Made by a program: the position numbers and the translations under genes. The notes below the pieces were generated by a model. The model saw nothing but the letters and a program-made list of their open reading frames with translations, was not told the DNA's origin and did no database searches. DNA of 64,000 nt from Lunularia cruciata (lineage: Eukaryota; Streptophyta; Marchantiopsida; Lunulariales; Lunulariaceae). The stretch is taken from assembly GCA_948567375.1 (NCBI GenBank), contig OX419757.1, forward strand, positions 52,945,665 through 53,009,664, given 5' to 3'. Shown here one piece after another: positions 8,095 through 64,000 of the stretch (its first letter is position 1; every line of letters begins with the position of its first letter).

Positions 8095-8206
8095 TCCGCT
8101 CCTTTCCCCTCCGTCAGAACCAGGATACCATACAATTCAGGAGCGGAGACTCCTGCCTTGTGTCGATCAGAGGCAGAGGAGTGAAGTGCAGGAGAGAGCA
8201 GGCAAG

Positions 8207-33897: not shown

Positions 33898-36800
33898 TGT
33901 AACAATATGGAGTTTAGCGACGTAGTTAGTAAGGCTAATGAAATAGAGAAAAAGCCAAATATGCTTAGAATATTTCAGAAGTATCTAAGAAGTTTCTTTG
34001 GAAGCTTCCGGCTAGCTTAACTTGCACCCCCTAATAGGTAGCTTTTAGAAGCTTCCAATTAGTTTAGCTTGCACGCCAAGTAGACGGTTTCTAGAAGAAA
34101 GCTTCTTGAGAAGCTTTCTGATTAACTTGGCTTGCACTCTAAGAAAGTAGCTCAAGGAAATTTCTTGAGAAGCTTCTCAAGTGCCTTGTATGCTATCTAT
34201 AAATACCAAAGCCGAAGTTCATGCTAGGTATTCAAAGTTTTCCTACATTCAAGTGTCCCAATGTGATCTTCCATTCTCTTATTTCTCTCTTTAGTCTTGG
34301 TCCTTTACATTGGTATCATAGCAAGAATGGGATATATGGAATTTATGGACCACCAAATCCACTTCCACCAAACCATTGGGATTTTTATGTCCAAGTACTA
34401 CCCAAGCATCATTTCACACAATTCATCACCTCATGCTTTGGATAAGATTTTTTGCATATGATCATCATATGTGAGGAACCCTTGGTGCTTCCCAATTGTA
34501 ACGTATGGAGAATGGTGGACTTGTTGCTTTTATGTGTTGATAAATAAGATAGACTAGGGGTGGCGTGATAGAGTAGCAACCATGGCGGCAATGCTTGAGG
34601 TTATCATGGCTATGTAGCAATAAATCGAGCACCTTACTCAATTGTTGGATGAGTAAGATCGTCAAAGACAAGAGCACGTAGAGAGGGTACTAGTTCAAGA
34701 AGGAGAAGTTTGAATTTGATTCCCTAAACCCAAAGTATTCAAAGGTAAGAATCTCCTAAGTGTAGTGGAGAATTTTGTGCTTGATTGTGAATGTTATTTT
34801 GAAGCTACCAATCTTCAAGAGGAGTGGAAATAGATTCTCTTGGCTTCTAGTCAATTGGATGGAGTAGCAAAGCTATGGTGGCAAATCCGAGTAGAGCGAG
34901 CTAAACAATAAATTGTTGCACCAATCTTGACATAGGTAGAATTCAAGAGTGCAATAATTAGTCAATTCTAAACTATAAATGCCACACAAGCTGCATGGGA
35001 TAGGTTTGCAGAGTTGAAATAGATTGGCTCTATAAGAAGTTACATCATGCAATTCTAGGACACCATCATGAAAATTCCATATATACTTGAAGGTGAAGCT
35101 TTGGATCAATTTGTGAGGGGCTTGAAGTCAAGAACCAAAGTAGAGGTAACTATGCAAGAGCCACAACACTTGGAGGAAGCCATGCGGTTGGCCAAACATT
35201 TTGATTCCTTGGTTGCAACAACTTGGTCTTGACCTCGATCTTCACAAAATCTACCGATACATTACACACGGATGGAGGAGCCGATAACAATGGAGATTGA
35301 TGCCATTCAATGGAGACCACTTGGCACTATAGATAGAGAAAAACTACAACAAAATGGTGGTTGTTTTTATTGTTGCCAATTGGGACATCGCATCGCTGAA
35401 TGTCTACTCAAGAATGAGTGACCTCAACAAGTCACCCAGATAGAGTTTGTGGAGCAAAATGATCAAAGAAATAAGGAATCCCAGTAGTAGATTTCAAGCC
35501 GCCTACTCAGAGCTTGATTAGTTCCAATGAGATTGAAGGCTTGACCTATGCAAGTTTGCTTCACTTGCAAGGTACAATATCTAATCGGGGTTGTAAAATT
35601 TTGGTTCATTCTGGAAGTTCAAAGAATTGCATGCATATACAAGTAGCAAGGGAATAGGGTACTCCTATCAAGCCAATAATTTGAAGTAGATTAATGATAG
35701 TGGATGGTAGAAAGGGTTCTACATTCCGCACCTTACATCCTATTACCTTGGAAGGAGTATTTGGAGTGTATGAGGTTTGTAGTGGCACTTCTACACTACG
35801 ATGTCATTCTAGGACTACCTTGGCTTGAAAGTCATAAGGTTCAATTTGATTGGACCCGACAACAAATTCAAGTACAACACCAAGGTAGGAATTTTTTATA
35901 AGATTGTCTAGCACCTTTGAGTAAGGCACCTAAGAGTAATAAGTCCAAGGATAGGAAGTTTTTTGAGAAGGTAGCCATAGAGCAAGCCTTGAAGAGAGAT
36001 GAGACCCAAGATGGGAAGTTTGCCAAGAAAGCAGCCATAGAGCAAGCTTTGAAGAAAGATGAGTCCCTAGATGGGAAGTTTGTTAGTGAAGCAGCCATAA
36101 AGCAAGCTTTGGAGGAAGATAAGTATATTTTTGTGGTGTGGATCAAGCAAATTGCACAAGGACAACCTGAGGAGAGTCAAGGAGAGCCTCATCAAGCAAT
36201 GGTTGATTAGATAATTCATGAGTTTGCAAATGTGTTTCTAGATGATCTGCCAAAGGGATTACCCTCTAATTGTTGTATGCACTTCAAGATTGAGTTATTG
36301 TCAAGGAGTACTCCAATGAGTAGACCAATCTATTGGCTCTCACCAAAGGAGTTGGAAGAGTTGCGAACAACACTTACAAAGTTGTTGGAGAAAGATTTCA
36401 TACAACATAGTACCTCTCCTTGGGGAGCACCGGTACTATTTGTTCCAAAAAAAGATGGAGGACTTCATTTCTGTATTGATTACTATGGGCTCAATAAGCA
36501 AACATTGAAGAATGCATATCTCTTGCCTCAGATTGATGACTAGCTTGATCAACTGAGTGGAGCACGATATTTCTCCAAGCTGGATCTTTGTAGTGGCTAT
36601 TGGTAAATCTACCTTGATAGGGAGGATGTGAAAAAGATTACCTTATGCACAAGGTACGGGCATTTCAAGTGGAGAGTTCTACCTTTTGGGCTCACTAATG
36701 CTCTAGCAATCTTCATGGATTAGATGCATTGGGCGTTGGAGGACTATTGGATCAATACGTGGTGGTGTTCTTGGATGATATCTTAATCTATAGCAAGATA

Positions 36801-39514
36801 AAGACAGAACATGTGAATTAGTCCTAAGACAAATATGATAGTGGAAATTTTACTACAAGAAGTCAAAATGTGCCTTTCTTCTTACCTTCTTGGGTCACAA
36901 GATCTCATCAAAAGTGATCAAGATGGAAGAGGAGAAAATCAAGGCCATTATTGATTGGCCTACTCCAAAGGATCCTCTAGAAGTATGAGCATTTAATGGA
37001 TTGGCTAGTTTTTACCGATCGTTCATCCACTGTTGTGCTCATGTGGTTGCACCACTGACTAATCCCTTAGAGAAGAACTTGAGCTTTCGGTGGACTACCA
37101 AGCATGATGTAGCATTCAAGAAGGTGAAGCATATGGTGTCTTCAAAAGCTATTCTTCAACCATATGATCCTCAACTATCTTGTGTGGTTGATTTTGATGC
37201 TTCTAACTTTGCAATTGGAGCTGTGTTGTAGTAGAATCCCTAGATGAATTACATCTCATTTCCTTTTTGTCTTGTTGACTTAATACAGCTGAAATAAATT
37301 ACTCTACTTGAGATTGGGAACAACTTGTAATGGTATATGCCACCAAAGTATGGAGGCATTACCTCTTGGGGAAACAAGTGGTCATGCGAATTGATCACAA
37401 ACCATTATTGCAGACTTTTACACTTAGAACACATGAAGAGTCAACATCATCAATGGGAGGAGCAACTCTAATTATTTGACATCAAACTTGAGTACAAACC
37501 AGGTTTGTTCTATGTCATCTCTAATGCCCTATCACAACAACCTGATTTGAAGTCTCTTCCTCTCATTGAGGAGGCAATTACAATGGTGTCAATTGACACC
37601 AAGGTCTAGAATGAGTTTTGATCAGCTCTACAACAAGATCCTTTCTTCCAGATGGTACATGGTTGTCTTGCAGTATGTGACAAGGAGTACAACACCTTCT
37701 CCTTAAAGGAAATTTTTCTATTCCATGAGGACCGGATCTATGTTCCAACCAAAGGTCATCTTTGACTTGTGCGCCTTTAAGAAGCCCATGATTTACCAAT
37801 TGTTGGTCACATGGGTGTGTACAAGACTTTGGGTACCCTCCAATGCCAATGGTGGTGTCCCAATATGGCACAAGATGTTTGGGAGTTTGTCTGATTGTGT
37901 GAGAGTTGCCAATGCAACAAAGCCAGTGACCAAAAACCGAGTGGACTACTTCAACCACTCCCCATTCCATCTACTCATTGGGAACATGTGAGCTAAGATC
38001 TCATCACCTCCTTGCCTAGGACAAAGCAAGGTCAAAAAACAATTGTGGTGTTTGTGGATAAGCTTAGTAAGAAAATCCATTTAGTACCAATAGTTGATAC
38101 TATGGATGCTCCAACCTTGGCATAGATCTACTTCAATAATGCATTTAAGCATCATGGGATGCCACATATACTCATCTCCGACCGTGATCCTTGCTTCATA
38201 GAAATTTTTGGCAAGCACTCTTCTAGATACTCAGCACCAAGCTTGCTTTGTCCAAGACCTATTATCCTCAAACTTATGGACAAACTAAATGTGCAAATTC
38301 CACCATGGAAGATATACTTCATGCCTTTGTCAACATTCACCATACCAATTGGGATGAATGTCTTGTAGCTATGGAGTTTACATACAATAATTCTAAACAT
38401 GCAAGCATGGGATTCTTTCCTTTCTCTCTCAATTTTGGCCAATACCCACTTGTTCCAAATTCCCTTCTTGCTCCTCCTCCATCTCATGTCCCTCATACTT
38501 CTACCTTTTTGGCCACCATCTCCCAATCCCTTTAACAAGCCAAATCTCATCTCCTTGTTGCTCAAAATCAATAGGAACAATATGTAGATCACCATCATTG
38601 TGATCTCAACTTTCAAATTGGTGATAAGGTCATGCTCTCCTCCAATAACTTCCCTCTCCCACTTGATACCTAAGTTTGTAAATTGGCCCCTAATTGGATA
38701 AGACCCTTTGATGTCACCCAAATTGTCTCTCATGTTGCTTATCGCCTTGCCTTGCCTTGCCTTGCCTTGTCATATGAGCAACCATCTTGTCTTTCATGTT
38801 TCCAAGTTGAAACCCTTTGTTCCTAACCCATCTTATTTTTCCTCTTGTGTCTAGCCTCCTCATCCTCCTCCTATCCCTATCAATGATCATGAGGAGTACA
38901 AAGTTGATTGTATCCTTGTACGTCGCCACATTCAACAAAGCAGTCAACAACATACGGAGTACAAGGTTCTTTGGAAAGGGTATCACCTTCATGATGCCAC
39001 ATGGGAACCTTTTTCTCATCTCCTGAATGCATAATTGGCTATCCAAGAGTTTGAGGCTTCATTGGCGACAAGGATGTCACCAACTAGCGGTGGGGAAATG
39101 TGTAACAATATGGAGTTTACCGATGTAGTTAGTAAGGCTAACAAAATAAAGAAAAGGCCAAATAAACTTAAAATATTCTAGAAGTATCTAGGAAGCTTCT
39201 TGGCTAGCTTAACTTGCACCCCTAGTAGGTAGCTTCTAGAAGGAAGCTTTTAGAAGGTTTCAACTAGCTTAGCTTGCATGCCAAGTAGGCGGCTTCTAGA
39301 AGGAAGCTTCTTAAGAAACTTCCCGGTTAACTTGGCTTGCACTCTAAGAAAATAGCTCATGGAAGCTTCTTGAGAAGCTTCTCAAGTGCCTTGTATGCTA
39401 CCTATAAATACTAAAGCCAAAACTCATGCTATGCATTTAGAGTTTTCCCACATTCAAATGTCCCAATGTGATCTTCCATTCTCCTATTTCTCTCCTTGAT
39501 CTTGGTCTTTTACA
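33898..39514 (+). mobile_element. Element A1: Ty3/gypsy chromovirus, full length but decayed
   Basis: The 5' LTR is 33898-34309 and the 3' LTR 39101-39514, both TGTAACAATATGG...TTTACA, with visible divergence between them. The primer site TGGTATCATAGC (34311-34322) matches the initiator-Met tRNA type. The polypurine tract GCGGTGGGGAAATG precedes the 3' LTR. The flanks ATGTT (33893-33897) and ATATT (39515-39519) look like a target duplication with one change. A TATA box (TATAAATA) is at 34198-34205. It inserted next to the LINE fragment. Confidence 0.92.
34582..39060 (+). pseudogene. A1 gag-pol relic
   Basis: Gag starts at ATG 34582, with TAG and TAA already at codons that are Gln/Lys in A3. 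Zinc knuckle CFYCCQLGHRIAEC is at ~35363. The protease reads LVHSGSS at ~35600, where the catalytic Asp of the family has become His. Three in-frame 60-bp repeats follow (35950-36129). Reverse transcriptase is ~36260-36830 and contains a stop after PQIDD; RNase H (DASNFAIGAVL) is ~37195. Integrase is ~37700-38560 with several stops. The chromodomain at ~38891-39010 is intact, with aromatic-cage positions EEYK, LWKGY and ATWEP. A run of CCTTG units at ~38744-38770 breaks the frame before it. Confidence 0.85.
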
Positions 39515-40325: not shown

Positions 40326-40330
40326 CCATG

Positions 40331-43300
40331 TGTAATTTTTGAGGATAGGAGAACTCCCAAGAGAAACATAAGAGAAACAAAATGCTTCATCTCTTAATAC
40401 TCCGATGCCCCAAAGGAGCACCTTGTCTTTGTTATATAGCAAAGATGATCCACTCAAAGGGAGCTCCACCCTTGGATCAGATACATGGATTGGTGAAATG
40501 TGAGTGAGATTCATCTTTAGACTAGTGGCATGGATTGGTGACATGTCAATCCTTGTTGTATTTGGTTGCTCAAAACTGTTTAACCAAAGGGATTCTTTGA
40601 GGAATCTTCCTATAAGAAGCTTGGAACTGCATGGATGAGGTATCATTGGAGAGCTCTTGATGAGACATAGAAGGAGGAGAATGTAATGCCTTTCTCCCAA
40701 AGGAAGAAACTCTTTACTTTTCTGAAGGTTAATTCATATGTTTAGGCCTCCAAAGTTGGCTCTAAAATGTTTGAGGTGTTTTCAACCTTTGCCCTATTGG
40801 TGGAAGTATTTTTTTGGTGACACCTCTATCTGATCTACTAAGAGAATCATATATAACATCCCTAAAGATATTACCAAGCCAATTTCCTTCTCTAAATACT
40901 ATGTCTAGCTAATGTTATTGTAAACTTCACCCCTCTTAAGATGCAATTCCTCTTTACAAAGTTGTTGCTTAAAAGAGTGCATTAACACCAATGCATTGAT
41001 CAAGTTAGCTATTGGCTCCCATGTTGCCTCATACAATGTGTAATCTTTCCAATGGACAAGGTATATCCCATGTGCATGGTAGTTACAATGGATGCATTTT
41101 TGGAGAATGCAATTAGCTTTGTATTCCTCCATACCATTAATGAATGTTAAACAAGATTGAACTTCTTGTATGGAAGAAAAGTGGGGCGTTTGGGGTGCAT
41201 ATCTATGTAGGAAGGAAACATCAAACACTGGATGGATCTTCATGTGTGGCAGTAGCTCAAGGTGATAGGCCATTATGCTAATTTGACAGAGGATGATAAA
41301 AGGCCCAATAAAATGAGGTCTCAGCTTACGAGGGCCAACAAACATGAGGTTGGTTATGGACAACCACACTTGATCTCCAATATTGAACTCCATGTGCCTA
41401 TGATGTGCATTTGCATATTCTTTCTTTCAATTTTGGATGTTCTGCAACCTATGCTTGACAATCTCCACACCTTTTTGGATTCTAGAAACAAAAGTGTTGA
41501 CAACATTAACTTTTGTAACCACTAGATGGATCTTTACCAAGCTTGAAGGTGTGCAAGGGTGTTCTCCATACATGAGGAAGAATGGTATGACCTATGCGGA
41601 TACACTCACTAAATTTGTGTAAGCAATTTCTACCAATGGAAATAAGGTGTCCCACCTTTCTTGCTCCTCTAAGTTGAAGCCCCAAAGCATACCCTTAATA
41701 GTAGAATTAGCTTGCTATGTTTGTCCATCAATTTGTAGGAGTTATGTCATGGATATGGCAAGTTTAGTGTTAAAGATATCAAAGAGTGTTCTCCAAAACA
41801 AATTAGTGATTGAGTGCCCTAATCAATGATGAGCACTTGAGACAAGCCAAGGTGAGAAAAGATTGCAATTGAGTACAATTGAGCTAATTGTAGAGTAATC
41901 AGGTCCTTGGTTCTAAGACACACATGAATCACTTTGCTAAGGCGGTTTACAAAGATTAAAATGGAGTCAAACCTTAAGGTGGTCTTGGTCAATTCCTAAA
42001 CTTGATCCATGTTGGACTAGGGAGGGGTTGAAGGAGTCCTTTCAGAACTTATTAGAGGTTTTATATTATTGACCAAATAGGCAGCTTCAAACATAGTACA
42101 TCATATTGTTGCTCATCTGGGGCAAATAGTAATGGCATTTGATTGCATCTAAGGTCTTGTCCACTCCAACATGACTTACAATGGTAGAATCATGACATTC
42201 TGCTAGAATGGTGGTTCTTAGGTCTGGGGCATCTAGGATGCATAACTTACCATCACAAAAGGTGAGTCCTTGGGTATTTGTTAAGTTTTTAGATGATTGA
42301 GCTCTTACAATCTATAGGTCAGTCTTCATGTTAGTAAGAATCCTTGGCCAAAATTCTATGTTCATCTTGACCTCTACCACCAGATTGTTTGCCATAGGCT
42401 TTTGGGTGAATGCATCTGCAAGCTGCTTCTTGCCTTTCACATATGTGATCATCATGTTGAACCATTGTCTCCACTCTGCCCAACAAATCTATTGACAAGA
42501 GAGATCTTTTGATATCTCAAGGTAGACTGGAGATTTGAGTTCTATCTCCACTACAAATGCCTTCTTGCCAAGATAATGCTTCCAATGTTTGGTTGCAAGG
42601 ACAATGGTAACATCTTCTTGTTTGGTGGTGTGATAATTGTGCTCTGTGGGTAACAATTGGTAATAAATTTTGAGAGAAATACGCAATAGGGTGCCATCCA
42701 TCATTTCATTCCTATTGTAATATTGTTCTTATCACAATGCTTGATGCATCTATAACTAGCTTGATTGGACATTTTGGGTCATACTATTTCAAGATTGGTG
42801 TATGTAGCAATGCATCTTTTGATTCTTGAAAGGCCAATTCCTATATGGTTCCTCACATCCACTTCTTCTCCTTGCCAAGTAGTGCTGTTAGAGGTTGTAT
42901 GACCTTGGGAAAGTCCTTGAAAAATCAACAATAGAACCCCATCAATCCCAAGAAGCTCTTGAGTTGAGTTTGATCTTCTAGAGCACCACATTTTTGAATC
43001 ATCTATAATTATATATGAACACTTGGATACTTTCTGCACTTACTTTATGCCTCAAGCAATCTAATTTAGACTTGCCAAACTTGCATTGAGATTTTGGTAT
43101 ACAATTGGTTTTTTCATAAAATCTAAAGGGCTTCTTGTAGATATTGCTAGTGCTCTTTCATCTTCCGTTTGTAGACTAAGATCTCATCAAGGAAGATGAT
43201 AACAAATTTATCCAAGTATGGATGAAATATGTCATTCATCAAACTCATGAAAGTGGTTGGTATGTTGGTAAGGCCAAGTGGCATCACTAGGTACTCAAAG

Positions 43301-46300
43301 TGACCATACCTTGTTTGAAAGACAGTTTTGTGTATGTCTTCTTCCATGATCTTGGTTTGGTTATAACTACTCCATAGATCCAATTCAGTGAAGTGTTTTG
43401 CCCCACTAAGTCGATCAAATAGGTCATCCATGCAAGGTAATGGGTATTTTTGTTCCACCATTTGTTGATTTAGGCCCCAATAATCAATGTACATGTGCAT
43501 TGTACCATCCTTCTTCTTCACAAACAAGATAGGAGTCCCATAATGGTGATACAATGGTTAGATAAACCTTTTCTACATCATATCTTCAATTTGAGCCTTG
43601 CATTCCTCCAACTCATGAGGTGATAGTTGATGTGGAGCTTTACAAAGAGGTGTCTTCCCACAAAAATAGCTCAATTTTATGATCTACTCTCCTTTTTGGT
43701 GGTAATCTTAAGGGTAAATCATCAAGAAAGACATCTTGAAACTCATTGACCACATCTTTCAAATTCTCAAGAATTTTGCTATTGAGTTGTGAACTCTAGA
43801 CTTCTCTTATTAGACCCATGAAACATCTATTTGCTTATCAATAGCTATTGTCCCCATGACATAGAGAGTTAATTCTTGCCTTTGCAATCTTTCTTTATCT
43901 CTAATGATCTTCCATTGTGTAGTTCTCACTATTTTATTTCTCCAATCTACCATAGGATTGTAGTGCTCCATCCATGGCATGTTAAGATCACATTGTAATA
44001 AGCTAACCGTATCACTTGCCATTCAATTTCTTCTTGATACTCTCCTATAGAGATTTTACCTTTCTAGATTATGATTCAATCTTCTCTATTTCACCATTAG
44101 ATAACTCTACTTCTTCATTTTCATCCTTCTTTAGTTCCATCCCCAGCCTTATTGCAACAAAGTGAGAGGAGAAACTCTTTGTTGCTCTAGGTTCTATCAA
44201 TACTCTCACTTGATTTCCTTATAGGAATCCATTTATGACATTAAATTGTGCATTTGTTTTTCTTAACCTTTGTGCACTTGTTCTCTTCCTCCTCCTTCTT
44301 GTATGCTTCTTTATTGATCTAGTAAGGCCACAAGGTACATTTATTAGTGAATTTTGTTTTCCAATATGATTTTAGGATCCTCTTTTTCAATTTGTCTCTC
44401 TAAGTTATTCAAAGTTATTTGTATGGAGGCCAAGGACCTCTAGGAAGGTGAGCACAACAATTGATAGTCATGTGTCTAACTCGGCCACAATTGTAACAAT
44501 GTCATTGTTCTACTTGAGCCTCTTCCCCTCATAGGAATCTAGATCTCCTTTCTTTGACCTACTCCCATTCTACTTGGAGTGGTTGTGCTCCTTGGTCTCA
44601 AAAATGAAGATTGCCCAATTCCATAGGAATTGGTCCACAAAGTGTGGTGTTTCAGCCTGATAGTGTTGAGTTGAGACTACTTTTTCACCTCCTCCAAGTG
44701 CTCCTACTATTGTTTGAGTACATGCAATAGCTTCAAAAGTAGTGCAAGCATTTTGTACCATTACCTCTTGATAAATTCACTCTTTTAACCCCTATTTGAA
44801 ATTATCAAGAGATTTTTTTGGATTCATATTTATTATCAAAACCTATAGATCAAGAAATGCTTCCATGTACTCTTGTATGTTGTTCTTCTACTTCAACCCC
44901 CATAGTTGCATTTGAGCTATTTGTAGGGAGTCCACAAATTAGAAATTCTTCAATTGCACTTCTTGCAATGCCATCTAAGTGATCTCTCTTCCTTTTGCAA
45001 ATATTGATTGTTCTCCAGCATTGTACCATGTGAGTGCTTTATCAATCATGTACCCGCATGCAAACATGCCTACAAAATGATTGGTGATTCCAAATGTGAA
45101 TAATCAAAAGTATTTATTCATTCTTAAAATCTAGTTTTCCACTACTCCCATGGAATGTTGTCCCTTGTAAGGCTCAATATTGCATGTCTTCTTCATCCGT
45201 AGTAACAATGTGGCTTCATTGTTGATCAAGATCAATGTCATCGGCATGAGTGACTCTCCAAGTACTTTAGTTGTTGTTATTATTGAGTTTTGGGATGATT
45301 CTCCTTGATGGTTCTTGAAGGTATGTATTTGACTTTGCAATGCCTCGATTGTCATCTTGATCTCCCAAAACTTGTTCAACATCCCCTACATTCCTTGCAT
45401 AAGATCTTTCAATTGTGGATCTATGATTTGTACACATAGAAAATGCTCTATCACTATTGCTTACTTCAATAGAAGGTTAATATGGTCAGTTGGGAAGAGG
45501 CACATATGATTGAATCTACCATTGGGACCTCAAACACTATCACTCATTGATAATGCTACTCACCAAAAATGGACTATGAAATCTCTAAATATCACTTTTG
45601 GTCTAATTACATAACGAATTTCTACTTGCATGTTGAAAGGGAGAGGATTTGGTATATTCAGATCCATTGCATCATAACATAACATAAATTGTCAAATCTC
45701 ACTCTCTATCATATATCACCATAGGTAGAATCACCGGGTTTGGAAAATTTATTACTATGTCCATGAACTTTACACCAAAATGACAAACAAAATATACTTT
45801 CACTTGTTCACATTGTATGTACATAATCTTGATGTGAAACGGATTTAAGAATGGAAAATGAGGTGCAAGATATTGTCTTCAAGGAGTATCTATCCCATCT
45901 TCTTTCTAAAATACCTCCAATCTATTGATTACACTATGTTTTCTCTCCCTTAAATCACTCAATCTCAATAGCCAATGTTCTTCCAAGAGGGATGATCCAC
46001 TCTCTTGGATTAAAACACCTACTCTAATACCATTGTAATATTCCAAGGATAGGGAAACACCCAAGAGAAACTTAAGAGAAGAAAGAAAAGAGAAACACAA
46101 TGCTTCATCCCTCAATACTCAAATGTCACAAAGGAGCACCTTGTTTTAATATAGCAAAGAGGATCTACTCAAAAGGAGCTCCACCCTTGGATAAGATACA
46201 TGGATTGATGACATGTCAACAAGCTCTACCCTTAGGTTAGTTGTATGGATTGGTGATATGTCAATCCTTGTCTTATTTGGTTGGTCAAACAAGTTTGACC

Positions 46301-46639
46301 AAAGGTAATCTTTGGAGAATCTTCTTACAAAAAACTCTTATCTACATGGATGAGATATCATTGGAAAGCTCTCAATGAGATGCAAGGGGAGTAAAATGCA
46401 TTGTAAGTTTTCCTTAGGGAGTGCAAATATTTGATTTTTCAAGGCCTAATTCATCCATTTAGGCCTCCAAAATCAGCTCTAAAGTTTTCATGGTGTTTTC
46501 ATTCTCTACCTTATTAGTGGAAGTACTATTTTGGTAACACTTCTATTTGCTCTACTTAGACCACCATATATAACATCCCTCAAGATATTACCAAGCAAAT
46601 TTCCACCTTTAGATACTATCTCTAGCTAATGGTTTTACA
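40331..46639 (-). mobile_element. Element B1: Ty3/gypsy chromovirus with exact target duplication
   Basis: On the minus strand the 5' LTR is 46639-46034 and the 3' LTR 40922-40331. CCATG flanks both ends (40326-40330, 46640-46644). The primer site on the minus strand reads TGGTATTAGAG (46032-46022), of initiator-Met type. The polypurine tract AAGAGGGGTGAAGTT (40937-40923) borders the 3' LTR. It inserted into the minus-strand relic H. The LTRs differ at many sites, so the insertion is old. Confidence 0.94.
40950..46015 (-). pseudogene. B1 gag-pol relic
   Basis: In minus-strand order: a gag remnant (~46000-44450) with zinc knuckle CYNCGRVRHMTINC (~44500-44457); protease-like sequence; reverse transcriptase (43554-43147), where the catalytic box reads FLDEILVY, the second Asp being replaced by Glu; RNase H near 42704-42489 (HYLGKKAFVVEIELKSP); a broken integrase core; and the integrase C-terminus plus chromodomain (41393-40905), with YLVHWKDYTLYEATWEP and the EEYK aromatic residue kept. 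Stops separate all blocks. The chromodomain is the best-preserved part. Confidence 0.82.
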
Positions 46640-47536: not shown

Positions 47537-50500
47537 TGTAAAAATATGGAGTTTAGCAACGTAGTTAGTAAGGTTAATGAAGTAGAGATTAAGCCAAATT
47601 AGCCTAGAATATTCTAGAAGTATCTAGAAAGCTTCTTGGGAAGCTTCTTGGCTAGCTTAACCTGCATCCCAAGTAGATAGATTCTAGAAGGAAGCTTCTA
47701 GAAGCTTCCAACTACCTTAGCTTGCATGCCAAGTAGGCAACTTCTAAAAAGAAGCTTCTTGAGAAACTTCTCGGTTAACTTGGCTTGCACTCTAAGAAAG
47801 CGACTCAAGGAAGTTTCTTGAGAAGCTTCTCAAGTGCCTTGTATGCTACCTATAAATACCAAGGCTGAAGCTCATGCTAGGCATTTAGAGTTTATCCACA
47901 TTCAAGTGTCTCAATGTGATCTTCCATTCACTTATTTCTCTCCTTGATCTTGGAATTTTACATTGGTATCACAATAGGAATGGGATGGATGGAATTTATG
48001 GACCACCAAATCCACTTCCACCAAACATTGGGATTTTTATCTCCAAGTACTATCCAAGCATCATTTCATAAAATTCATCACCTCACGCTTTAGACAAGAT
48101 TTTTTGCATATGATCATCATATCTAAGGAACTCTTGGTGCTTCCGGTTGTAACTTATGGAGAACATTGGACGTGTTGCTTCTATGTGTTAATAAATTAGA
48201 TAGATTAGGGGTGGCATGATAGAGTAGCAACCATGGCGGCAATGCCCAAGGTTATCATGGCTATGTAGCAACAAATCAAGCACCTTACTCAATTGTTGGA
48301 TGAACTAGATTATTGACAAAAAGAGCATGTAGAGAGTGTACCAGTCCAAGAAGGAGAAGATTGAATCTGATTCCCTAAACCCAAGGTATTCAAAGGCAAG
48401 AATCTCCCAAGTGTAGTGGAGAATTTCTTGTTTGACTATGAATGTTATTTTGAAGCTACCAGTCTTCAAGAGGAGCAAAAATAGATTCTCTTGGCTTCTA
48501 GCCAAATGGATGGAGTAGCAAAGCTATGGTGGCAATTCCAATTAGAGCAAGTTGAATGGAAAATTGTTGCACCAATCTTGACGTAGGCAGAATTCAAGAG
48601 TGCAATAATTAGTTGATTCCAAGCTATAAATACCATACAAGCTCCACGGGATAAGTTGGCAGAGTTGAAACAAATTGGTCTATAAGAAGTAAAATCATGC
48701 AAATTCCATATATAATTGAAGGTGAAGCTTTGGATTGACTTGTGAGGGGCTTGAAGTCAAGAACCAAATTAGAAGTAACCACGTGAGAGCCACAACACTT
48801 AGAGGAAACCATGCGATTGGCCAAACGTTTTGATTCCTTGGTTGCAACAACTTGATCTTGACCTCAACCACCATAGAACCTACCAATACACTACAAATGG
48901 GTGGAGGAGCCGGCACTAATGGAGATTGATGCCATTCAATGGAGACCACTTGGTATTGTAGATAGAGAAAAACTACAACAAAATGGTGGTTGTTTTTATT
49001 GTTTCTAGTTGGGACATTGCATTGTTGAATGTCCACTCAAGAAAGGACAACCTCAATAAGTCGCCCTGATGGAGTTTGTGGAGCAAAATGATCAAGGAAA
49101 CAAGGAATCCCAATAGGAGATTTTGAGCCGCCTATTTGTAGCTTGATTAGTTCCAATGGGATTGAAGACTTGACCTATGCAAGTTTGCTTCACTTGTAAG
49201 GTATGATATCTAATTGGGGTTGTAGAATTTTGGTTGTAGAATTTTGGTTGATTCTAAAAGTTCAAAAAATTGTATGTCTATGCAAGTAGCAAGGGAATTG
49301 GGTATTCCTATCAAGCCAATAATTGGAAGTAGATTGATGTGCAAAAGATTACCTTTTGCACAAGGTATGGGCATTTTGAGTGGAGAGTTCTACCTTTTGG
49401 GCTCACTAATACTCTAGTCCTCTTCATGGATAAAATGCATTGGGTGTTAGATGGACTATTGGAGCAATATGTGGTGGTGTTCTGGGATGATATCTTAATC
49501 TATAGCAAGACAGAGGTAAAACATGTGAATCACATGCAAGAAGTCCTAAGATGACTACAACAATGGAAATTTTACTACAAGAAGTCAAAGTGTGCCTTTT
49601 GGCAAAAGGAGGTTACCTTCTTGGGTCACAAGATCTCATTGGAGGGGATCAAGATGGAAGAGGAGAAAATCAAGGCAATTACTAATTGGCATAATCTAAA
49701 GGATGCTACAAAATTATGGGCATTTAATGGGTTTGCCAGTTTTTATCGACTATTCATCCACTATTATGCTCATGTGGCTGCACTAGTAATTGACCTCTTG
49801 GGGAAGAACTTAAGCTTTCAATGGACCATCAAACACAAAGAAGCATTCCAAAAGTTGAAACATATGGTGTCTTCAAGACCCATTCTTCAACCATATGATC
49901 CTCAACTACCTTGTGTGGTTGATTTTGATGCTTCTAACTTTGCAATTGGAGCCGTGTTGCAACAAGAATTCCCAGATGGATTACATCCCATTGCCTTTGT
50001 GTCTCACTGACTTAATATAATTGAAAGAAATCACTCTACTCGAGATCAGGAACAACTTGTAATGGTTTATGCCACTAAGGTATGGAGTCATTACTTCTTG
50101 GGGAAATGAGTGGTCATGTGAATTGATCACAAACCATTGTTGTAGACCTTACACTTAGAACACATGAAGAGTCAACATCATTGATAGGAGGAGCAACTCT
50201 AATTGTTTGAAATCAAACTTGAGTACAAACCAGGTTGGTTCCATGTCACCCCTAATGCCCTATCACGACTACCTGATTTGAAGTCTCTTCTTCTCATCAC
50301 GGTAGCATTTTTTACAATGCCAATTGACTCCAAGGTCCAAAATGAGTTTTGGTTAGCTCTACAACAAGATCCCTTCTTCCAAATGGTACATGGTCATCTT
50401 GCAACATGCAACAAGGAGTGCAACACCTTCTCCTTCAAGGAAAGCCTTCTATTCTATGACGATTGGATATATGTTCCAACCAAAGGTGATCTCCAACTTT

Positions 50501-52247
50501 TTCATCTTCAAGAAGCCCATGATCTACCAATTGCAAGTCACATGGGTGTGGACAGGACCTTGGGTACACTCCAATGCCAATGGTGGTGGCCCTACATGAT
50601 ATGAGATGTTCATGAGTTTGTCCAATCATGTGAGAGTTGCCAATGCAACAAAGCCAGTAACCAAAAACCAAGTGGACTCCTTCAACCACTCCCCATTCCA
50701 TCTACTCATTGGGAACATGTGAGCTTAGATCTCATCAACTCTTTTCCCAAGACAAAGCAAGGTCACATAGCAATTGTGGTGTTTGTGGATAAGCTTAGTA
50801 AGTAAATCCATTTGGCACCAATAGTTGATATTGTGGATGCTCCAACCTTGCCGTAGGTCTATTTCAACAATGTATTCAAGTATCATGGGATGTCGTGTGT
50901 ACTCATCCCCAACCGTGATCCTTGCTTCATTGGAAAGTTTTGGCAAGCACTCTTTCAGATACTTGGTACCAAGCTTGCTTTGTCCATGGCCTATCATCCT
51001 CAAACTGATGGACAAACGGAACATGCAAATTGCACCTTGGAAGATATGATTTGTGCATTTGTCAACATTCACCATACCAATTGGGATGAAAGTCTTGCAG
51101 TTGCGGAGTTTACATACAATAATTCTAAACATGCAAGCATCGGATTCTCTCCTTTCTTTTTCAATTTTTGCCAAGACCCACTTGTTCTAGATTTCTTTCT
51201 TGCTCCTCCTCCATCTCATGTTCCTCATACTTCCACCTTCTTGACTGCTATCTCCCAATCCCTCCAACATGCCAAATCTCATCTCCTTGTTGTTGAGAAT
51301 TAATAGAAACAATTTGCAAATCACTTTGTTGTGATCTCAACTTTCAAATTGGTGATAAGGTTATGCTCTCATCCAATAACCTCCCTCTTCCACTTGATAC
51401 CCAAGTTTGTAAACTGGCCCCTAATTGGATAGGACCCTTTGATTTCACCCAAATTGTCTCTCATGTTGCTTATTACTTTGCCTTGCCTTGCCTTGTCATA
51501 TGCACATCCATCCTATGTTTCATATTTCCAAGTTGAAACTCTTTGTTCCTAGTCCATTGTCTTTTTCCTCTTGAGTCCAACCTCCTCCTCTTCCTCTCCC
51601 TATCAATGATCATGAGGAGTACAAAGTTGATCGTATCCTTGCAGGTCGCCACATTCAACAAGGCCGTCAACAACATATGAAATACAAGGTCCTTTGGAAA
51701 TGGGCCCCTACATGATGCCACATGGGAACCTCTTTCTCACCTCCAAAATGCATAGGCGACTATCCAAGAGTTTGAAGCTTCAATGGTGACGAGGGCATCA
51801 CCAACTAGCAGTGTGAGAATGTGTAACAATATGGAGTTTAGCAATGTATTTAGTAAGGTTAATGAAGTAGAGATTAAGCCAAATCAGTCTAGAATATTCT
51901 ATAAGTATCTAGGAAGCTTGTTTGGAAGTTTCTCGACTAGCTTAACTTGCACCTCAAGTAGGTAGCTTCTAGAAGGAAGCTTCTAGAAGCTTCCAACTAG
52001 CTTAACTTGCATGCCAAGTAGGCAGCTTCTAAAAGGAAGCTTCTTGAGAAGCTTCCTGGTTAACTTGGCTTGCACTCTAAGAAAGAAACTCAAGGAATTT
52101 TCTTGAGAAGCTTCTCAAGGGCCTTGTATGCTACCTATAAATACCAAGGCTGAAGCTCATGCTAGGCATTTGGAGTTTACCCACATTCAAGTGTCCCAAT
52201 GTGATCTTCCATTCTCCTATTTCTCTCCTTGGACTTGGTCTTTTACA
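47537..52247 (+). mobile_element. Element A2: Ty3/gypsy chromovirus with exact target duplication and internal deletion
   Basis: The LTRs are 47537-47962 and 51822-52247, 426 bp each. ATCCT flanks both ends (47532-47536, 52248-52252). The primer site TGGTATCACAAT is at 47964-47975 and TATA boxes are at 47851-47858 and 52136-52143. Each LTR carries a perfect GAAGCTTCTAGAAGCTTC array (47691-47708, 51976-51993). The internal region is ~0.94 kb shorter than in A1 and A3 because of one deletion at ~49338. Confidence 0.95.
48233..51780 (+). pseudogene. A2 gag-pol relic, protease to reverse transcriptase deleted
   Basis: Gag starts at ATG 48233. The zinc knuckle CFYCF*LGHCIVEC (~48985) has a stop inside it. 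The protease reads LVDSKSSKNCM at ~49230. The sequence then jumps within GATG (~49337-49340) from the protease into the reverse transcriptase at KITFCTRYGHFEWRVLPFGL, losing the rest of the protease, the 60-bp repeats and the RT fingers and palm. The catalytic box reads FWDDILIYS. RNase H (DFDASNFAIGAVLQQ, ~49921) and a long integrase stretch (~50203-51303) follow with few stops. The chromodomain (~51613-51730) is frameshifted. Confidence 0.85.
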
Positions 52248-54084: not shown

Positions 54085-57000
54085 TATAATAATCCAAGGA
54101 TATGACAATCCCCAAGAGAAACATAGGAGAGGAAACACAAACCTTCAACAATCAATATTTTGATGCCCCAAAGGAGCACCTTGTCTTTACTATATAGCAA
54201 AGAAGATCTCCTCAAAGAAAGCTCTACCCTTGGATCAAATACATGGATAGGTGATATGTCAACAAGATCTATCTTTAGATTAGTTGCATGGATGTGTGGC
54301 ATTTTGGTCCTTATCCTATCTAGTTGGTCAAACAAGTTTGACCAAAGGGAACCTTTAGAGAATCTTCTTATAAGAAAATCAAAATTACATGGGTGAAGTA
54401 TCATTGGAAAGCTCTCAACAAGATGAAAAATGGGGAGAGAAGGCAAGTTGTTTTCCTTTCAAATCAGGGATTTTACATTTTTAGACCTAATTCATTTATT
54501 TAGGCCTCCAAAATTGGCTTTGAAGTTTTCAAAGTATTTTTAGCTCTTGCTCTATTATTGCAAGTACTCTTTTGGTGACACCTCTATCTGATCTCTTTAG
54601 TCCATCATATATAACATCCTTCCAAATGTTACCAAGCCAATTTCCACCTCTAGAAAATATGTCTAGCTATTGGTATTATGAACCTTCCTATTTTAAGACC
54701 CAACATCTTCATTGCAAAGTTTCTTAACACCTTGTTGGATTCTAGAAACAAAAGTGTTGACAATGTCAACCTTGGTAGCCATTGGGTGGATCTTCATCAA
54801 GTTCAAAGGTGTGAAAGGATGCTCTCCGTACATGAGGAAGTATGGTGTGACCTATGAAGATGCATTCACTTAATTGTTGTAGGAAAATTCCACCAATGGA
54901 AGTAAGGTGTCCCACCTCTCTTCCTCATCTAAGGTAAAGCCCCAAAGCATGTCCTCAATAGTGCAATTAGCCTGCTCTATTTTTCCATTGGTTTGTGGAT
55001 GGTAAGCCATGGACATGGTCAGTTTGGTTTTGAAGGCGCCAAAGAGTGCTCTCCAAAACAAACTAGTGAATTAAGTGCCTCTATTGGTGATGATGAGCAC
55101 TCAAGACAAGCCATGGTGAGTAAAGACTAAAACTAAGTACAATTGAGCTAATTATGGAGTAGTCACATCCTTGGTGGTAGGACGCACATGAATCATTTGC
55201 TAAGTTGGTCGACAAAGACTATGATGGAATTAAAGCCTAAAGTGATCTTTGGCAATTCACAAACAAATCCATGCTTACTTGTTCCCAATGCTATGTTGGA
55301 GTAGGGAGGAGTTGAAGGAGTTCTATGGGAACTTAATTAGAAGCTTTATTTTCTTGATAGAGTATGTAACTTTGAATATACTCTTATCACATTGTTACTC
55401 ATCTTGGGCCAATAATAATGGTGTTTGACTAAATCTAAGGTCTTGTCCACTCCAATGAGACTTGCAATGGTAGAATCATGACATTCTGCTAGGATGGTGG
55501 TTCTTATGTTTGTGGCATCTGGAATCCATAACTTACCATCACAAAAGGTGAGTCCTTGGGTACTAGTTACACCTTTGGATGATTGAGCTCCTACAATTTG
55601 TGGGTTAGTTTTTGTAGCAATAAGAATCCTTGGTCAAAATCCTAGGTTCATCTTGACCTCTACCACCAGAATGTTTGTCATCGGCATTTGGTTGAATGCA
55701 TCTACAAGTTGCTTCTTGCTTTCCACATATATGACCATCATGTTGAACCATTTTCTCCACTCTACCCATTGACTATGTTGATGAGATAGATCTTTTTGTG
55801 TCTTGAGGTAGACTAGAGGTTTATGGTCTATCTCTACTATAAATGCCTTCTCACCAAGGTAGTGCTTTGAATGCTTGGTTGCAAGGACAAAGGCCAACTC
55901 TTCTCATTTGGTGGTGTGATAGTTGTGTTATGCCGGTTATAGCTTTTGAGAGAAATATGCAACTAGGTGTCATCTGTCATTCCATTCTTGGTGTAGGATT
56001 GCTCCTATTGCAATGCTTGATGCATCTATAGCTAATTTGATTGGATGTTTTTGGGCATACTATTTCAATTCCTAAAAGGCCAATTCTTGTGTGGTTTCCC
56101 ATATCTACTTCTCACCTTGCCAAGTATTTCCATTAGAGGTTGTGAAATGTTGGAAAGGTCCTTGACAATTTGACAATTGACCCCATCAATCCCAAGAAAC
56201 TCTTGAGTTGAGTCTGATCTTTTGGAGCACCCCATTTCTAAATGACCTCTATTTTATTTTTTAACACTTGGATACCTTCTGCACTTACTCTATGCCTAAA
56301 TTAATCTACTTCAAACTTCCCAAACTTGCACTTTGAGATTTTGGCATACAACAAATTTTGTCATAGAATTTGGAGGACTTTTGGCAAAAGTTGCTTGTGC
56401 TTCATCATTGTCTTGTTGTAGACTAAGATCTCATCTAAGAAAATGATAATAGATTTATCCAAGTGTAAACAAAATAGTCATTCGTCGAGCTCATGAAAGA
56501 GGCTGGTGCTTTAGTGAGGCCAAATAGCATCATCATGGACTCAAAGTGAGCATAGCTTGTTTGAAAGACAATTTTTTGTATGTCTTCTTCCATTATCCTA
56601 ATTCGATTGTAATTGCTCCAAAGATCAAGTTTGGTGAACTGCTTTGCACCATTGAGTAGACCAAAAAAGTCATCCATGCAAGGTAATTGGTATCTCTTCA
56701 CCACTTGTTGATTAAGTCCCCAATAGTCAATGCACATACGCATTATCCCATCCTTCTTCTTCATAAACAAGACAGGAGCTCCATATAGTGATATATTGGG
56801 TTGGATAAACCTTTTCTGCATTATATCCTCAATTTGAGCCTTACACTCTTGCAACTCATGAGGTGATAGTCAATATGGTGCCTTACAAGAATATGGTTTC
56901 CAGGAATTATCTTGATTTTATGATCTACTCTCCTTTTTGGTGGTAATCTTAAGGGTAAATTATCCAAAAAGAAATCTTGAGATTCATTGACCACATCTTT

Positions 57001-58890: not shown

Positions 58891-59509
58891 TATAACAATA
58901 TGGAATTTAGCGACGTAGTTAGTAAGGTTAATGAAGTAGAGAATAAGCCAAATTAGCCTAGAATAGTTTAGAAGCATCTAGGAAGCTTCTTGGGAAGCTT
59001 TCCAACTAGTTAACTTGCACTCCAAGCAGGTAACTTCTAGAAGCTTCTAACTAGCTTAGCTTGCACTTTAAGAAAGTGGCTCAAGGAAGTTTCTTGAGAA
59101 GCTTCTCAAGGGCCTTGTATGCTACCTATAAATACCAAAGCCAAAGCTCATGCTAGGCATTTGGAATTCTCCCTCATTCAAGCGTCCCAATGTGAGCTTC
59201 CATTCTCCTATTTCTCTCCTTGGTCTTGGTCTTTTACATTGGTATTAGAGTAGGAATGGGATGGATGGACTTTATGGACCACCAAATCCACTTCTGCCAA
59301 ACCATTAGGATTTTCATGTCCAGATATTACCCGAGCATCGTTTCACATAATTCATTGCCTTGTGCTTTGGGCAAGATTTTGTGCATATGATCACCGTGTC
59401 TGAGGAACCCTTGATACTTCCGATTGTAACTTATGAAGAATGGTGGACGTTTGGTATCTATATGTCAATCAATTAGATAAACTGAGGGTAGTGGAATAGA
59501 GTAGTAGCT

Positions 59510-62500
59510 ATGGCGGCAATACCAAACGTTATCCTTGCAATGAAACAACAAATCGAGCATCTTACTCAATTGTTGGATGAATGAGACCAACAATGACAAG
59601 AACATATAGAGAGAGAGCTAGTTTGAGATGTAGAAGATTGCATTTGATTTCCGAAACCCAAGGTGTTTGAAGGCAATAATTTTTTTGGCACAATGGAGAA
59701 TTTTTTGTTTCACTACAAACGTTACTTTGAAGCCACCAATCTTCAAGATGAGTGGAAACAAATTCTCTTGACTTCTAGCCAATTGGATGGTGTGGCAAAA
59801 ATTTGATGGCGATTTTGAGTGGAGCAAGCTGAACGACAGACTGTTACACCAATTTTGACATGGGTAGAATTCAAGGATGCAATAGTTGATCAATTTCAAA
59901 CTATAAATGTCACTTGAGCCGCACAAGATAAATTGGTGGAGTTGAAGTAGATTGGCTCAATAAGGAGCTACATGACACAATTTTAGAACATCATCATGCA
60001 AATTCTAGATATCCAAGAAGATGAAGTTCTGGATCAATTTGTGCAAGGATTGAAGTAACAAACCAAATTGAAAGTAACCATGTGGGAGCCACACAACATA
60101 GAAGAAGCCATGCAATTGGTTGAGCGTTTTGATTCCTTTGTTGTGACAACTTAGTCTTGACCTTGACCTACACAAAGCGTACCAATACACTACGCATGAG
60201 TGGAAGAACCGGTACCAATGGAGATTGATGTTATCCAACAAAGACCACTTGGTATAGCGGATAGAGAAAGCTTGCGACAAAATGGAGGTTGCTTTTATTG
60301 TCGCCAAGTTGGACATTGCATTGCTAAATGTCCACTTAGGTGACCTTAACAAGTTGCCTAGATAGAGTCTATAGAACAAAATGATCAAGGAAACAAAGAA
60401 TCCTAGTAGGAGATTTTGAGTCGCCTACTAGGAGCTTGATTAGTTCCAATGGGATTGAAGGCTCAACCTATGCAAGTTTGCTTCACTTGCAAGGTATTAT
60501 ATCTAATCGTGGTTATAGGATTTTTGTTGATTTTGGAAGTTTGGAGAATTGCATGTTTATGCAAGTAGCAAAGGAATTGGGAATTCCTATCAAGCCATCA
60601 AGGAAGTAGATTGATGATGGTGGATAATAGATAGGGTTCTGCATTCCGTACCTCACATCCTATTACCTTCAAGATTGGGAAGGAGTATTTTGAGTGTATG
60701 AGGTTTGTAGTGGCACCCCTACACTATGATATCATTCTGGATCTACCTTGGCTTGAACGTCATAAGGTTCAATTTGATTGGACCCGATGACAAATTCAAG
60801 TACAACACCAAGGTAGGAATTTCCAACTAGGTTGTCTAGCATCTTTGAGTAAGACATCTAAGAATAGTTAGTCCCAAGATGGAAAGTTTGTCAAGAAGGT
60901 AGCAATAGGCAAACCTTGAAGGGAGATGAGTCCCAAGATGGGAAGTTTGCCAAGAAGGCAACCATGGAGCAAGCTTGGAAGAGAGATGAGTCATTGGAAG
61001 GGAAGTTGGCTAGTAAAGCAGCCATAGAGCAAGCTTTGGAGGAAGATAAGTTTGTATTTGCGGTGTGGATCAAGCCAATTGCACAAGAATAATCTAAGGA
61101 GTGCCAAGAGCCTCATCAAGCAATGGTTGATCGGATTGTTTAGGAGTTTGCGGATGTGTTTTTGGATGATTTGCCAAAGGGATTACCCTTTGATTGAGGT
61201 ATGCCCTTCAAGATTGAGTTATTACCATGGAGTACTCTAGTAAGTAGACCAATCTATTGGCTCTCACCAAAGGAGTTGGAGGAGTTGCAAATAAGATTTA
61301 TAGAGTTGTTGGAGAAGGACTTCATACAACATAGTACCTCTCCGTGGGGAATACCGGTACTATTTGTTCCAAAGAAGGATGGAGGACTTCATTTTTGTAT
61401 TGATTATCATGGGCTCAATAAGCAAACCGTGAAGAATGCATATCCCTTGCCTTGGATCAATGACTTGCTTGATCAACTAAGTGGAGCATGCTACTTTTCC
61501 AAGTTGGATCTTTGTAATAGCTATTGGCAAATTCCTATTGATAAAGAGGATGTGCAAAAGACTGCCTTTTGCACAAGGTATGGGCATTTTGAGTGGAGAG
61601 TTCTACCTTTTGGACTCACTAATGCTCTAGTAGTCTTCATGGATCAGATGCATTGGGTGTTGGATAGACTATTGGATCAGTCCATGGTGGTGTTCTTGGA
61701 TGATATCTTAATCTATAGTAAGAAAGAGGAAGAACACATGGATCATGTGCGAGAAGTCCTAAGATGACTATAATTATGGAAATTTTATTGCAAGAAGAGA
61801 AAATCAAGGCCATTACTGATTGGCCTACCCCGAAGGATGCTATAGAAGTACAAGCATTCAATGGATTGGTCGGTTTTTACCAACGGTTCATCCACTATTA
61901 TGCTCATGTGGATGCATCATTGATTGAACTCTTGGGAAAAAGCTTGAGCTTCCAATGGACCACCAAGCATGAAGAAGCATTCCAAAATTTAAAGCATATG
62001 GTGTCTTCAAGACCCATTCTTCAACCATATGATCCTCAACTACCTTGTGTGGTTGATTTTGATGCTTCTAACTTTGCAATTTGAGTTGTGTTACAACAAG
62101 AATTCCTAGATGGACTATATCCCATTTCCTTTGTGTCTTGCCGACTAAATACAGCTGAAAGAAATTACTCTACTCGAGATCAGGAACAACTTGCAATGGT
62201 ATATGCCACCAAGGTATGGTGGCATTATCTCTTGGGGAAACAAGTGATCATGCAAACTGATCACAAGCCATTGTTGTAGACCTTACACTTGGAACATATG
62301 AAGAGTCAACATCATTGTTTGACATCAAACTTGAGTACAAACCAGGTCGGTTTCATGTCATCCTTGATGCTCTATCACGATGACCTGATTTGAAGTCTGT
62401 TCCTCTCATCACGGTGGCAATTACGACAATGTCAATTGACTCCAAGGTCCATAACAAGTTTTGGTCAGCTCTACAACAAGATCCCTTCTTCCAAATGGTA

Positions 62501-63890: not shown

Positions 63891-64000
63891 AATGGCAACG
63901 AGGACGTCACCAACTAGCGGTGGGGAGATATGTAACAATATGGAGCTTAGTGACATAGTTAGTAAGGTTAATGAAGTAAAGGATAAGCCAAATTAGCCTA

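What the first reader, a model, noticed from the sequence alone, without database searches (positions are those of the whole stretch)
47691..47708. Perfect heat-shock elements in family-A LTRs upstream of the TATA box
GAAGCTTCTAGAAGCTTC fits the heat-shock element rule of alternating nGAAn/nTTCn blocks for four units without mismatch. It is in both A2 LTRs (47691-47708, 51976-51993); A3 has three perfect units (59035-59047) and A1 has weaker forms (34089-34096 and neighbours). A second, one-mismatch site (GAAGTTTCTTGAG, 47810-47822) lies ~30 bp before TATAAATA (47851). Heat-factor control is known for the copia element ONSEN; for a chromovirus I know of no such case.
Basis: partly seen in the sequence, partly recalled or inferred. 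Interest (0 to 1): 0.75.

Follow-up and report, generated by a model that had tools for sequence, protein, structure and literature searches.

The report
Heat-shock sites in liverwort retrotransposon promoters
A large family of jumping genes in a liverwort-like genome carries near-perfect binding sites for the host's heat-shock regulator in its promoters, and the pattern of mutations suggests that these sites matter for its spread, although heat activation itself has not been tested.

Summary
GAAGCTTCTAGAAGCTTC, a palindrome and a perfect four-unit heat-shock element (HSE), is at 47691-47708 and 51976-51993; the weaker sites are as described.

The host is liverwort-like and the element has a chromodomain. 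The 18-mer occurs 5,213 times in the own genome, its reversed control 0 times. Of 100 LTRs chosen blind to the HSE, 96 could be scored: 87 hold a perfect three-unit and 39 a perfect four-unit HSE. In 140 kb of arbitrary genome, 4 of 4 perfect four-unit sites lie in this LTR family.

Private mutations hit the GAA/TTC letters as often as other positions; variants shared by four or more copies mostly avoid them (4 in 45 columns against 83 in 240; Fisher p=0.001; 0 of 303 mask slides as low). I read this as purifying selection in transposing lineages. The host encodes a class-A-like and a class-B-like HSF.

Against: the commonest double dyad is spaced 12 bp, out of HSE register, and upstream stretches at 8 of 28 sHSP matches show no perfect HSE. 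Best reading: an HSF-coupled, ONSEN-like promoter in a chromovirus. Heat induction is untested.

The parts
47537..47962 (+). A2 5' LTR (TG...CA), holding the four-unit HSE
   Evidence: ATCCT directly before it and directly after the A2 3' LTR
51822..52247 (+). A2 3' LTR, same HSE; 37 of 426 sites differ from the 5' LTR (8.7%)
47691..47708 (.). perfect four-unit HSE, palindromic GAAGCTTCTAGAAGCTTC
51976..51993 (.). perfect four-unit HSE, second copy
47607..47629 (.). second array in A2 5' LTR: GAATATTCTAGAAGTATCTAGAA, five units, one mismatched letter; first three units perfect
   Evidence: two overlapping four-unit windows at 11/12; three-unit 9/9 at 47607
47810..47822 (.). TATA-proximal three-unit site, 8 of 9 letters
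47751..47763 (.). three-unit site, 8 of 9 letters, about 90 bp upstream of the TATA region
47851..47858 (+). TATA box TATAAATA
   Evidence: same in all five window LTRs. The genomic copies were chosen by this region, so its constancy there is by construction.
33898..34309 (+). A1 5' LTR, degenerate HSEs only
39101..39514 (+). A1 3' LTR, degenerate HSEs only
58891..59238 (+). A3 5' LTR; about 78 bp of U3 shorter than the A2 LTRs
   Evidence: 78 gap columns against either A2 LTR
59035..59047 (.). perfect three-unit HSE in A3
63931..64000 (+). start of A3 3' LTR, cut by the window end
38855..39034 (+). chromodomain of A1 (open piece)
   Evidence: Pfam PF00385, 2.1e-9
61198..61767 (+). reverse transcriptase piece of A3
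   Evidence: Pfam RVT_1, 2.9e-24

Best explanation
The U3 of a very abundant chromovirus family in a liverwort-like host is a promoter built from HSE blocks, partly on about 60-bp tandem repeats, upstream of a TATA box. When the host's heat-shock factor is activated, trimers bind the perfect three- and four-unit blocks (about -230 and -150 from the TATA region), helped by weaker sites at about -90 and -30. They drive genomic RNA from the LTR, which is then reverse-transcribed and reinserted. Shown: the sites, their abundance, their place, the element type, host HSF genes, and the avoidance of key letters by inherited variants. Inferred: HSF binding, heat-induced transcription, and heat-driven transposition.
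For: 18-mer 5,213 times in the genome, reversed control 0; 5,939 + 5,873 = 11,812 LTR TATA regions, reversed control 0. 87 of 96 LTRs with a perfect three-unit and 39 of 96 with a perfect four-unit HSE; R-U5 0 of 98. In 140 kb of arbitrary genome 4 of 4 four-unit and 14 of 17 three-unit sites are in this LTR, which covers 1.7% of the bases; reversed patterns 0 and 2. Copies with close relatives keep the sites best: three-unit in 47 of 47, against 38 of 47 in the more isolated half. Shared versus private variants: key letters 4:51, other U3 83:229, R-U5 33:104, HSE spacers 10:22; Fisher p of key against these 0.001, 0.008, 0.006; 0 of 303 mask slides as low. The 18-mer block has 0 shared and 14 private variants at its 12 key positions. 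The 18-mer lies whole inside the 'optimal' HSE gel-shift oligo of PMC1283150 (passage). Host HSF DNA-binding domains at 1.8e-23 and 2.9e-18. A liverwort HSF, Marchantia MpHSFB1, binds an HSE probe in gel shift (PMC12445474, passages).
Against: The most constant U3 feature is a 12-bp-spaced double dyad GAAnnTTCnnnnGAAnnTTC (92 of 94 copies, 215 in all), out of the 5-bp HSE register; the in-register 10-bp form is in 38 of 94 (distances). The 100 LTRs all come from the first 10.9 Mb of one contig and match the TATA pattern exactly, so they lean towards less decayed copies. The LTR-pair version of the selection test has the same direction but is not significant (13 pairs, p=0.17). Upstream stretches of 651 bp at 8 of 28 small-HSP matches show no perfect three-unit HSE (three of the eight have one 8-of-9 site) and about the background rate of dyads (6 in 5.2 kb against 157 in 140 kb), so the host's own HSE style was not confirmed. 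The window copies are old (8.7% and 12.5% LTR divergence) and their reading frames are broken into pieces. No heat data.
Confidence: 0.6

Rival explanations
1. The conserved unit is the GAAnnTTC dyad as the site of some other dimeric plant factor (for instance a GARP-type or other palindrome-binding factor; recalled), and the perfect HSEs arise where two dyads happen to fall 10 bp apart.
For: Dyads 12 bp apart outnumber those 10 bp apart 215 to 38, and the 12-bp form is in 92 of 94 copies. With dyads kept, a single U3 gets a three-unit site by chance about a third of the time.
Against: The -230 block is a separate three-unit HSE with other spacers (GAATATTCTAGAA, GAATATTCCGGAA, GAATATTCTGGAA). 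The TTC-to-GAA step of 5 bp occurs 286 times (7 bp 250, 9 bp 131, every other step 7 or fewer). 87 of 96 copies with a three-unit site exceed the dyad-preserving null.
Confidence: 0.2
2. The sites work as HSEs but respond mainly to development or other stress through HSFs, not to heat.
For: HSFs act outside heat in plants (established knowledge; the title of PMC5961379 in the listing names developmental genes under benign conditions).
Against: No direct evidence either way in these tools.
Confidence: 0.12
3. The motif is a by-product of AAGCTTCT repetition in U3 tandem repeats, without function.
For: U3 holds about 60-bp repeats, and Markov shuffles keeping 5-letter words keep three-unit sites in 50% and four-unit sites in 16% of cases.
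Against: Inherited variants avoid the key letters while private ones do not, which a by-product would not show.
Confidence: 0.08

Closest known systems
ONSEN / COPIA78 (Ty1/copia, Arabidopsis) and other Brassicaceae COPIA families
   Same: LTR with clustered nGAAn units including the four-unit (4P) class; HSFA2 binds the ONSEN LTR in gel shift and activation falls in HSF mutants (PMC3907296 and PMC5059998, passages). A legend says all cytosines of two ONSEN LTRs are CHH, without CG or CHG sites; here CHG is depleted (U3 o/e 0.18 against 0.63 in background).
   Different: Different superfamily (Ty3 chromovirus), host (liverwort-like) and copy number (thousands). CG is not depleted relative to background (0.35 against 0.38). 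Heat response and HSF binding not shown here.
TCN3 and TCN12 of Cryptococcus
   Same: LTR retrotransposons (TCN3 is Ty3/gypsy) with putative HSEs and more mobile at 37 C (PMC12810828, passages).
   Different: Fungal host; two putative HSEs in TCN3 and one in TCN12.
Heat-activated plant Ty3/gypsy: PHRE1/PHRE2 (bamboo), Cryptomeria elements, sunflower Tekay
   Same: Ty3/gypsy, transcribed or mobilised in heat treatments (PMC8656106; review PMC9780303; PMC11728184; passages).
   Different: PHRE LTRs were reported to interact with TCP, DOF and GATA factors; sunflower plants also had drugs and cold; HSE arrays were not mentioned in the passages seen.
Drosophila copia and gypsy with predicted HSF sites
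   Same: Predicted HSF sites in LTRs of heat-responsive elements (PMC10745035, passages).
   Different: Single matrix hits, animal host, gypsy is not a chromovirus (recalled).
HSE-bearing Helitrons of Caenorhabditis
   Same: A transposon type that holds substantial numbers of a genome's HSEs (PMC6927752, start of abstract only).
   Different: DNA transposon and animal host.

Membership tests
Chromovirus (Ty3/gypsy with chromodomain) | reverse transcriptase, RNase H and integrase of Ty3 type | tested here: met
   RVT_1 2.9e-24 (A3); RT_RNaseH_2 1.2e-18 (A2); rve 1.9e-06 (A3) but 28.5 bits, below the Pfam cut-off of 32.6; two further integrase-region pieces gave no match
Chromovirus (Ty3/gypsy with chromodomain) | chromodomain at the end of pol | tested here: met
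   PF00385 2.1e-9 in the A1 piece at 38855-39034; A2 piece only 13.9 bits (cut-off 25.1), A3 piece no match
Chromovirus (Ty3/gypsy with chromodomain) | which plant lineage (Reina, CRM, Tekay, Galadriel; names recalled) | not tested
   no reference set was placed on a tree
LTR retrotransposon | TG...CA LTRs, 5-bp target duplication, primer site | tested here: met
   A2 flanks ATCCT on both sides; of 14 complete candidate LTR pairs, 10 have identical 5-bp outer flanks, 3 differ by one letter or a one-base shift, and 1 is not a true pair; TTGGT follows the 5' LTRs
HSF-coupled LTR (ONSEN type) | three or more adjacent alternating nGAAn units in the LTR promoter | tested here: met
   87 of 96 LTRs perfect three-unit, 39 of 96 perfect four-unit
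HSF-coupled LTR (ONSEN type) | HSF present in host | tested here: met
   two PF00447 loci; class A-like and B-like by eye
HSF-coupled LTR (ONSEN type) | HSF binds the LTR | not testable with these tools
   needs gel shift or ChIP
HSF-coupled LTR (ONSEN type) | RNA and DNA copies accumulate on heat stress, HSF-dependent | not testable with these tools
   needs RNA-seq and mutants
HSF-coupled LTR (ONSEN type) | same HSE style in host heat-shock promoters | tested here: inconclusive
   8 of 28 HSP20 matches, 651 bp upstream of each: no perfect three-unit site; stretches may be introns or 5' leader

The most novel reading that the evidence does not exclude
The chromovirus family holds nearly all the high-affinity four-unit HSEs of this liverwort-like genome (5,213 places of one 18-mer). 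It would thus not only fire on heat but compete with host genes for HSF, acting as a sponge or, near genes, as spare heat enhancers that rewire the heat response.
Probability: 0.15. Interest if true: 0.85.

Novelty: new variant of a known kind. Interest (0 to 1): 0.62.

Why it matters
HSF-coupled retrotransposons have been worked out in copia elements of flowering plants. A chromovirus with thousands of perfect HSEs in a liverwort would show that the same trick arose in the other main LTR superfamily and in an early branch of land plants. It would also offer a host with seemingly few HSF genes (two PF00447 loci found; intron-split genes may be missed) in which titration of HSF by transposons can be tested directly.

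Tried and rejected
Chance: rejected by shuffles and by the reversed pattern.

Pure AAGCTTCT repetition: tested with dyads kept. It explains three-unit sites in about a third of single U3s, not the conservation.

Key-versus-spacer variability alone (mean minor share 0.025 key, 0.092 spacer, 0.082 other U3, 0.051 R-U5; 1 of 303 slides as low) was set aside as weak, because mutation bias could cause it: within LTR pairs the key letters (13 changes in 45 positions) also change less than the spacers (11 in 18). The shared-versus-private test replaced it. The LTR-pair test was underpowered (p=0.17); 54 further partner LTRs could not be fetched. It used 13 of 15 candidate pairs: L079/L080 was left out for 16% divergence (the flanks suggest that L079 is a solo LTR with its own duplication), L103/L104 for a missing LTR start.

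Rows dropped: 4 of 100 LTRs without a recognised start; 94 of 100 with both ends went into the alignment (99 rows with the 5 window LTRs); columns with fewer than 50 letters were left out.

The genome-wide count of GAANNTTCNNGAANNTTC was asked eight times and never answered. Host sHSP promoters as a positive control were inconclusive. No DNA of another liverwort was compared; genome contigs and viral contigs were not searched, since by their description they hold prokaryote and viral records.

'Not in print' rests on paper searches only.

Full report
What is there. The window carries three copies of one retrotransposon family (A1, A2, A3) on the + strand. LTRs run from TGTAAC or a close form to TTTACA. 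A2 has the same five bases, ATCCT, on both outer sides, so its two LTRs belong to one insertion; they differ at 37 of 426 sites (8.7%). The A1 pair differs at 50 of 401 (12.5%). A2 kept the 18-mer in both LTRs, but with 8.7% change an 18-base stretch would often survive by chance, so this alone proves nothing (inference). Open pieces match reverse transcriptase, RNase H and, weakly, integrase. A chromodomain is found in A1 at 2.1e-9. A second family with a chromodomain, B, lies on the - strand between them.

Host. The glycine-cleavage T protein at 8090-9427 is 88% identical to an unnamed protein and 83% to one of the liverwort Calypogeia fissa, then 66 to 77% to the other 118 proteins listed. 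I take the host to be a leafy liverwort; the genome is held unnamed, at 565.8 Mb in 74 contigs.

The motif. Alternating GAA and TTC at 5-bp steps is the HSE rule (established). A2 has it perfect for four units in both LTRs. The A2 5' LTR also has a five-unit array with one wrong letter at 47607-47629. A3 has three perfect units. A1 has only sites with a wrong letter. Outside the A LTRs the window has no comparable four-unit site and one three-unit site, and the four LTR regions of family B have no three-unit site. The 18-mer is contained in the 'optimal' HSE oligo used for gel shifts in PMC1283150 (passage).

In the genome. The palindromic 18-mer occurs at 5,213 places, its reversed control at none. 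A pattern on the TATA region, blind to the HSE, finds 5,939 + 5,873 LTRs with up to 2 mismatches. I fetched the 100 places listed, all exact matches in the first 10.9 Mb of one contig; 96 had a recognisable LTR start. Of these, 87 have a perfect three-unit HSE and 39 a perfect four-unit one; 31 have the exact 18-mer. Markov shuffles keeping words of 2, 3, 4 and 5 letters give three-unit sites in 1.0, 4.0, 21 and 50%, and four-unit sites in 0.1, 0.3, 2.0 and 16%. Most perfect sites fall at two places, about -250 to -210 and about -150 from the TATA pattern; sites with one wrong letter add -170, -90 and -30 to -40. The R-U5 part has none in 98. In 14 arbitrary 10-kb stretches this LTR covers 1.7% of the bases but holds 4 of 4 four-unit and 14 of 17 three-unit sites; reversed patterns give 0 and 2.

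Is it more than repetition? Keeping every GAAnnTTC dyad and re-dealing the gaps gives on average 32 of 96 copies with three-unit sites (largest of 200 runs 43) and 17.5 with four-unit sites (largest 32), against 87 and 39. But the copies share ancestry. For a single U3 the chance of two or more separate blocks under that null is about 5%, while 55 of 96 have them. So the register by itself is only moderately surprising once dyads are granted.

Selection. The stronger evidence compares two kinds of variants in 94 aligned LTRs. Changes private to one or two copies mostly happened after insertion; changes shared by four or more copies were mostly passed on through transposition (inference from the life cycle). 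Private changes fall on HSE key letters as often as elsewhere (51 in 45 columns; 229 in 240 other U3 columns; 104 in 122 R-U5 columns; 22 in 18 spacer columns). Shared changes avoid them (4, against 83, 33 and 10). Fisher p for key against other U3, R-U5 and spacers is 0.001, 0.008 and 0.006. Restricting to columns where the reference LTR has the majority letter gives 0.009, 0.039 and 0.009. None of 303 slides of the key mask along U3 is as low. With stricter and looser cut-offs the p-values range from 0.007 to 0.09; the weakest is key against spacer with shared meaning three or more. Among columns with A or T as majority, shared changes are 0 in 30 key columns against 30 in 205 U3 and R-U5 columns; for G or C, 4 in 15 against 86 in 157, not significant by columns (p=0.32) and p=0.035 against private changes. 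At the 18-mer block the 12 key letters show 14 private and 0 shared changes. Caveats: blocks were chosen on the A2 5' LTR after seeing the motif, recurrent mutations can imitate sharing, copies are not independent, and the p-values are therefore rough. About 26 columns at the start of R-U5 were fixed by the way copies were chosen, which lowers shared changes there and makes the R-U5 comparison conservative. The LTR-pair version points the same way without significance (p=0.17). Copies with close relatives keep HSEs better (47 of 47 against 38 of 47 with a three-unit site; rank correlation -0.47), as expected if the spreading lineages carry them and old copies decay.

Recent activity. Of 15 candidate LTR pairs, 14 were complete; 13 differ by 0.7 to 7.3% and one, not a true pair by its flanks, by 16%. 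Ten of the 14 have identical 5-bp outer flanks. The family has moved recently; the window copies are older and broken. I single out no copy.

Host reader. The genome encodes at least two HSF DNA-binding domains. One lies beside a long open frame with a DVFWEQFL segment, which I recognise from memory as like the activator motif of class A factors; the other resembles class B (class by eye). Marchantia MpHSFB1 binds an HSE probe (PMC12445474, passages).

Against. The most constant U3 feature is a pair of dyads 12 bp apart (92 of 94 copies), which is out of HSE register, while the in-register pair is in 38 of 94. The 12-bp form still reads as a three-unit site with one wrong letter (GAAGCTTCTTGAG), so it may be a weak HSE, or a site for something else. 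As a positive control I looked upstream of 8 of 28 small-HSP matches: no perfect three-unit site, one 8-of-9 site in three of the eight, and 6 dyads in 5.2 kb, about the background rate of 157 in 140 kb. These stretches may be introns or leader; the control is inconclusive, not supportive.

Methylation. U3 is poor in CHG (o/e 0.18, against 0.63 in the 140-kb background) but not in CG relative to background (0.35 against 0.38). Two ONSEN LTRs are described as lacking both (PMC3907296 legend). TTCnnGAA steps appear as TTCTAGAA (245), TTCCGGAA (12), TTCTGGAA (9) and TTCCAGAA (4), as C-to-T decay of a methylated CCGG could give, and all four remain valid HSE steps (inference). Copies with the CCGG form are not clearly older or younger than those with CTAG (median nearest distance 0.029 and 0.032).

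Known relatives. ONSEN and other Brassicaceae COPIA elements are the working model. Heat-responsive Ty3/gypsy elements are known in bamboo, Cryptomeria and sunflower, putative HSEs in Cryptococcus TCN3, and predicted HSF sites in Drosophila LTRs. In seven searches I saw no listing of HSE arrays in a plant chromovirus or of an HSF-driven retrotransposon in a liverwort; most listed papers were not opened, and the library holds open-licence papers only.

Verdict. Mechanism: HSF-coupled promoter, confidence 0.6.

Noticed in passing
window 47817-47834 and equivalents: CTTGAGAAGCTTCTCAAG, an 18-bp perfect palindrome close to the TATA box, is in all five window LTRs and 40 of 94 genomic copies. It may be a separate dimer site.
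   Followed up: partly
L005-L104, U3: CHG sites are strongly depleted in this LTR family (U3 o/e 0.18 against 0.63 in background), CG is not.
   Followed up: partly
window 40322-46631 and 54135-58602: A second chromodomain element family (B) on the - strand, with LTRs of about 550-600 bp and no perfect three-unit HSE.
   Followed up: partly
window 5342-6490: Open frame with two cyclic-nucleotide-binding domains (PF00027, 6.5e-45), near the glycine-cleavage T gene at 8090-9427.
   Followed up: no
window 1727-3889 (-): 720-aa open frame, rich in charged coiled-coil-like sequence, with no Pfam match.
   Followed up: no
window 58678-58690: The only perfect three-unit HSE outside family-A LTRs in the window, TTCATGAAATTTC.
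   Followed up: no
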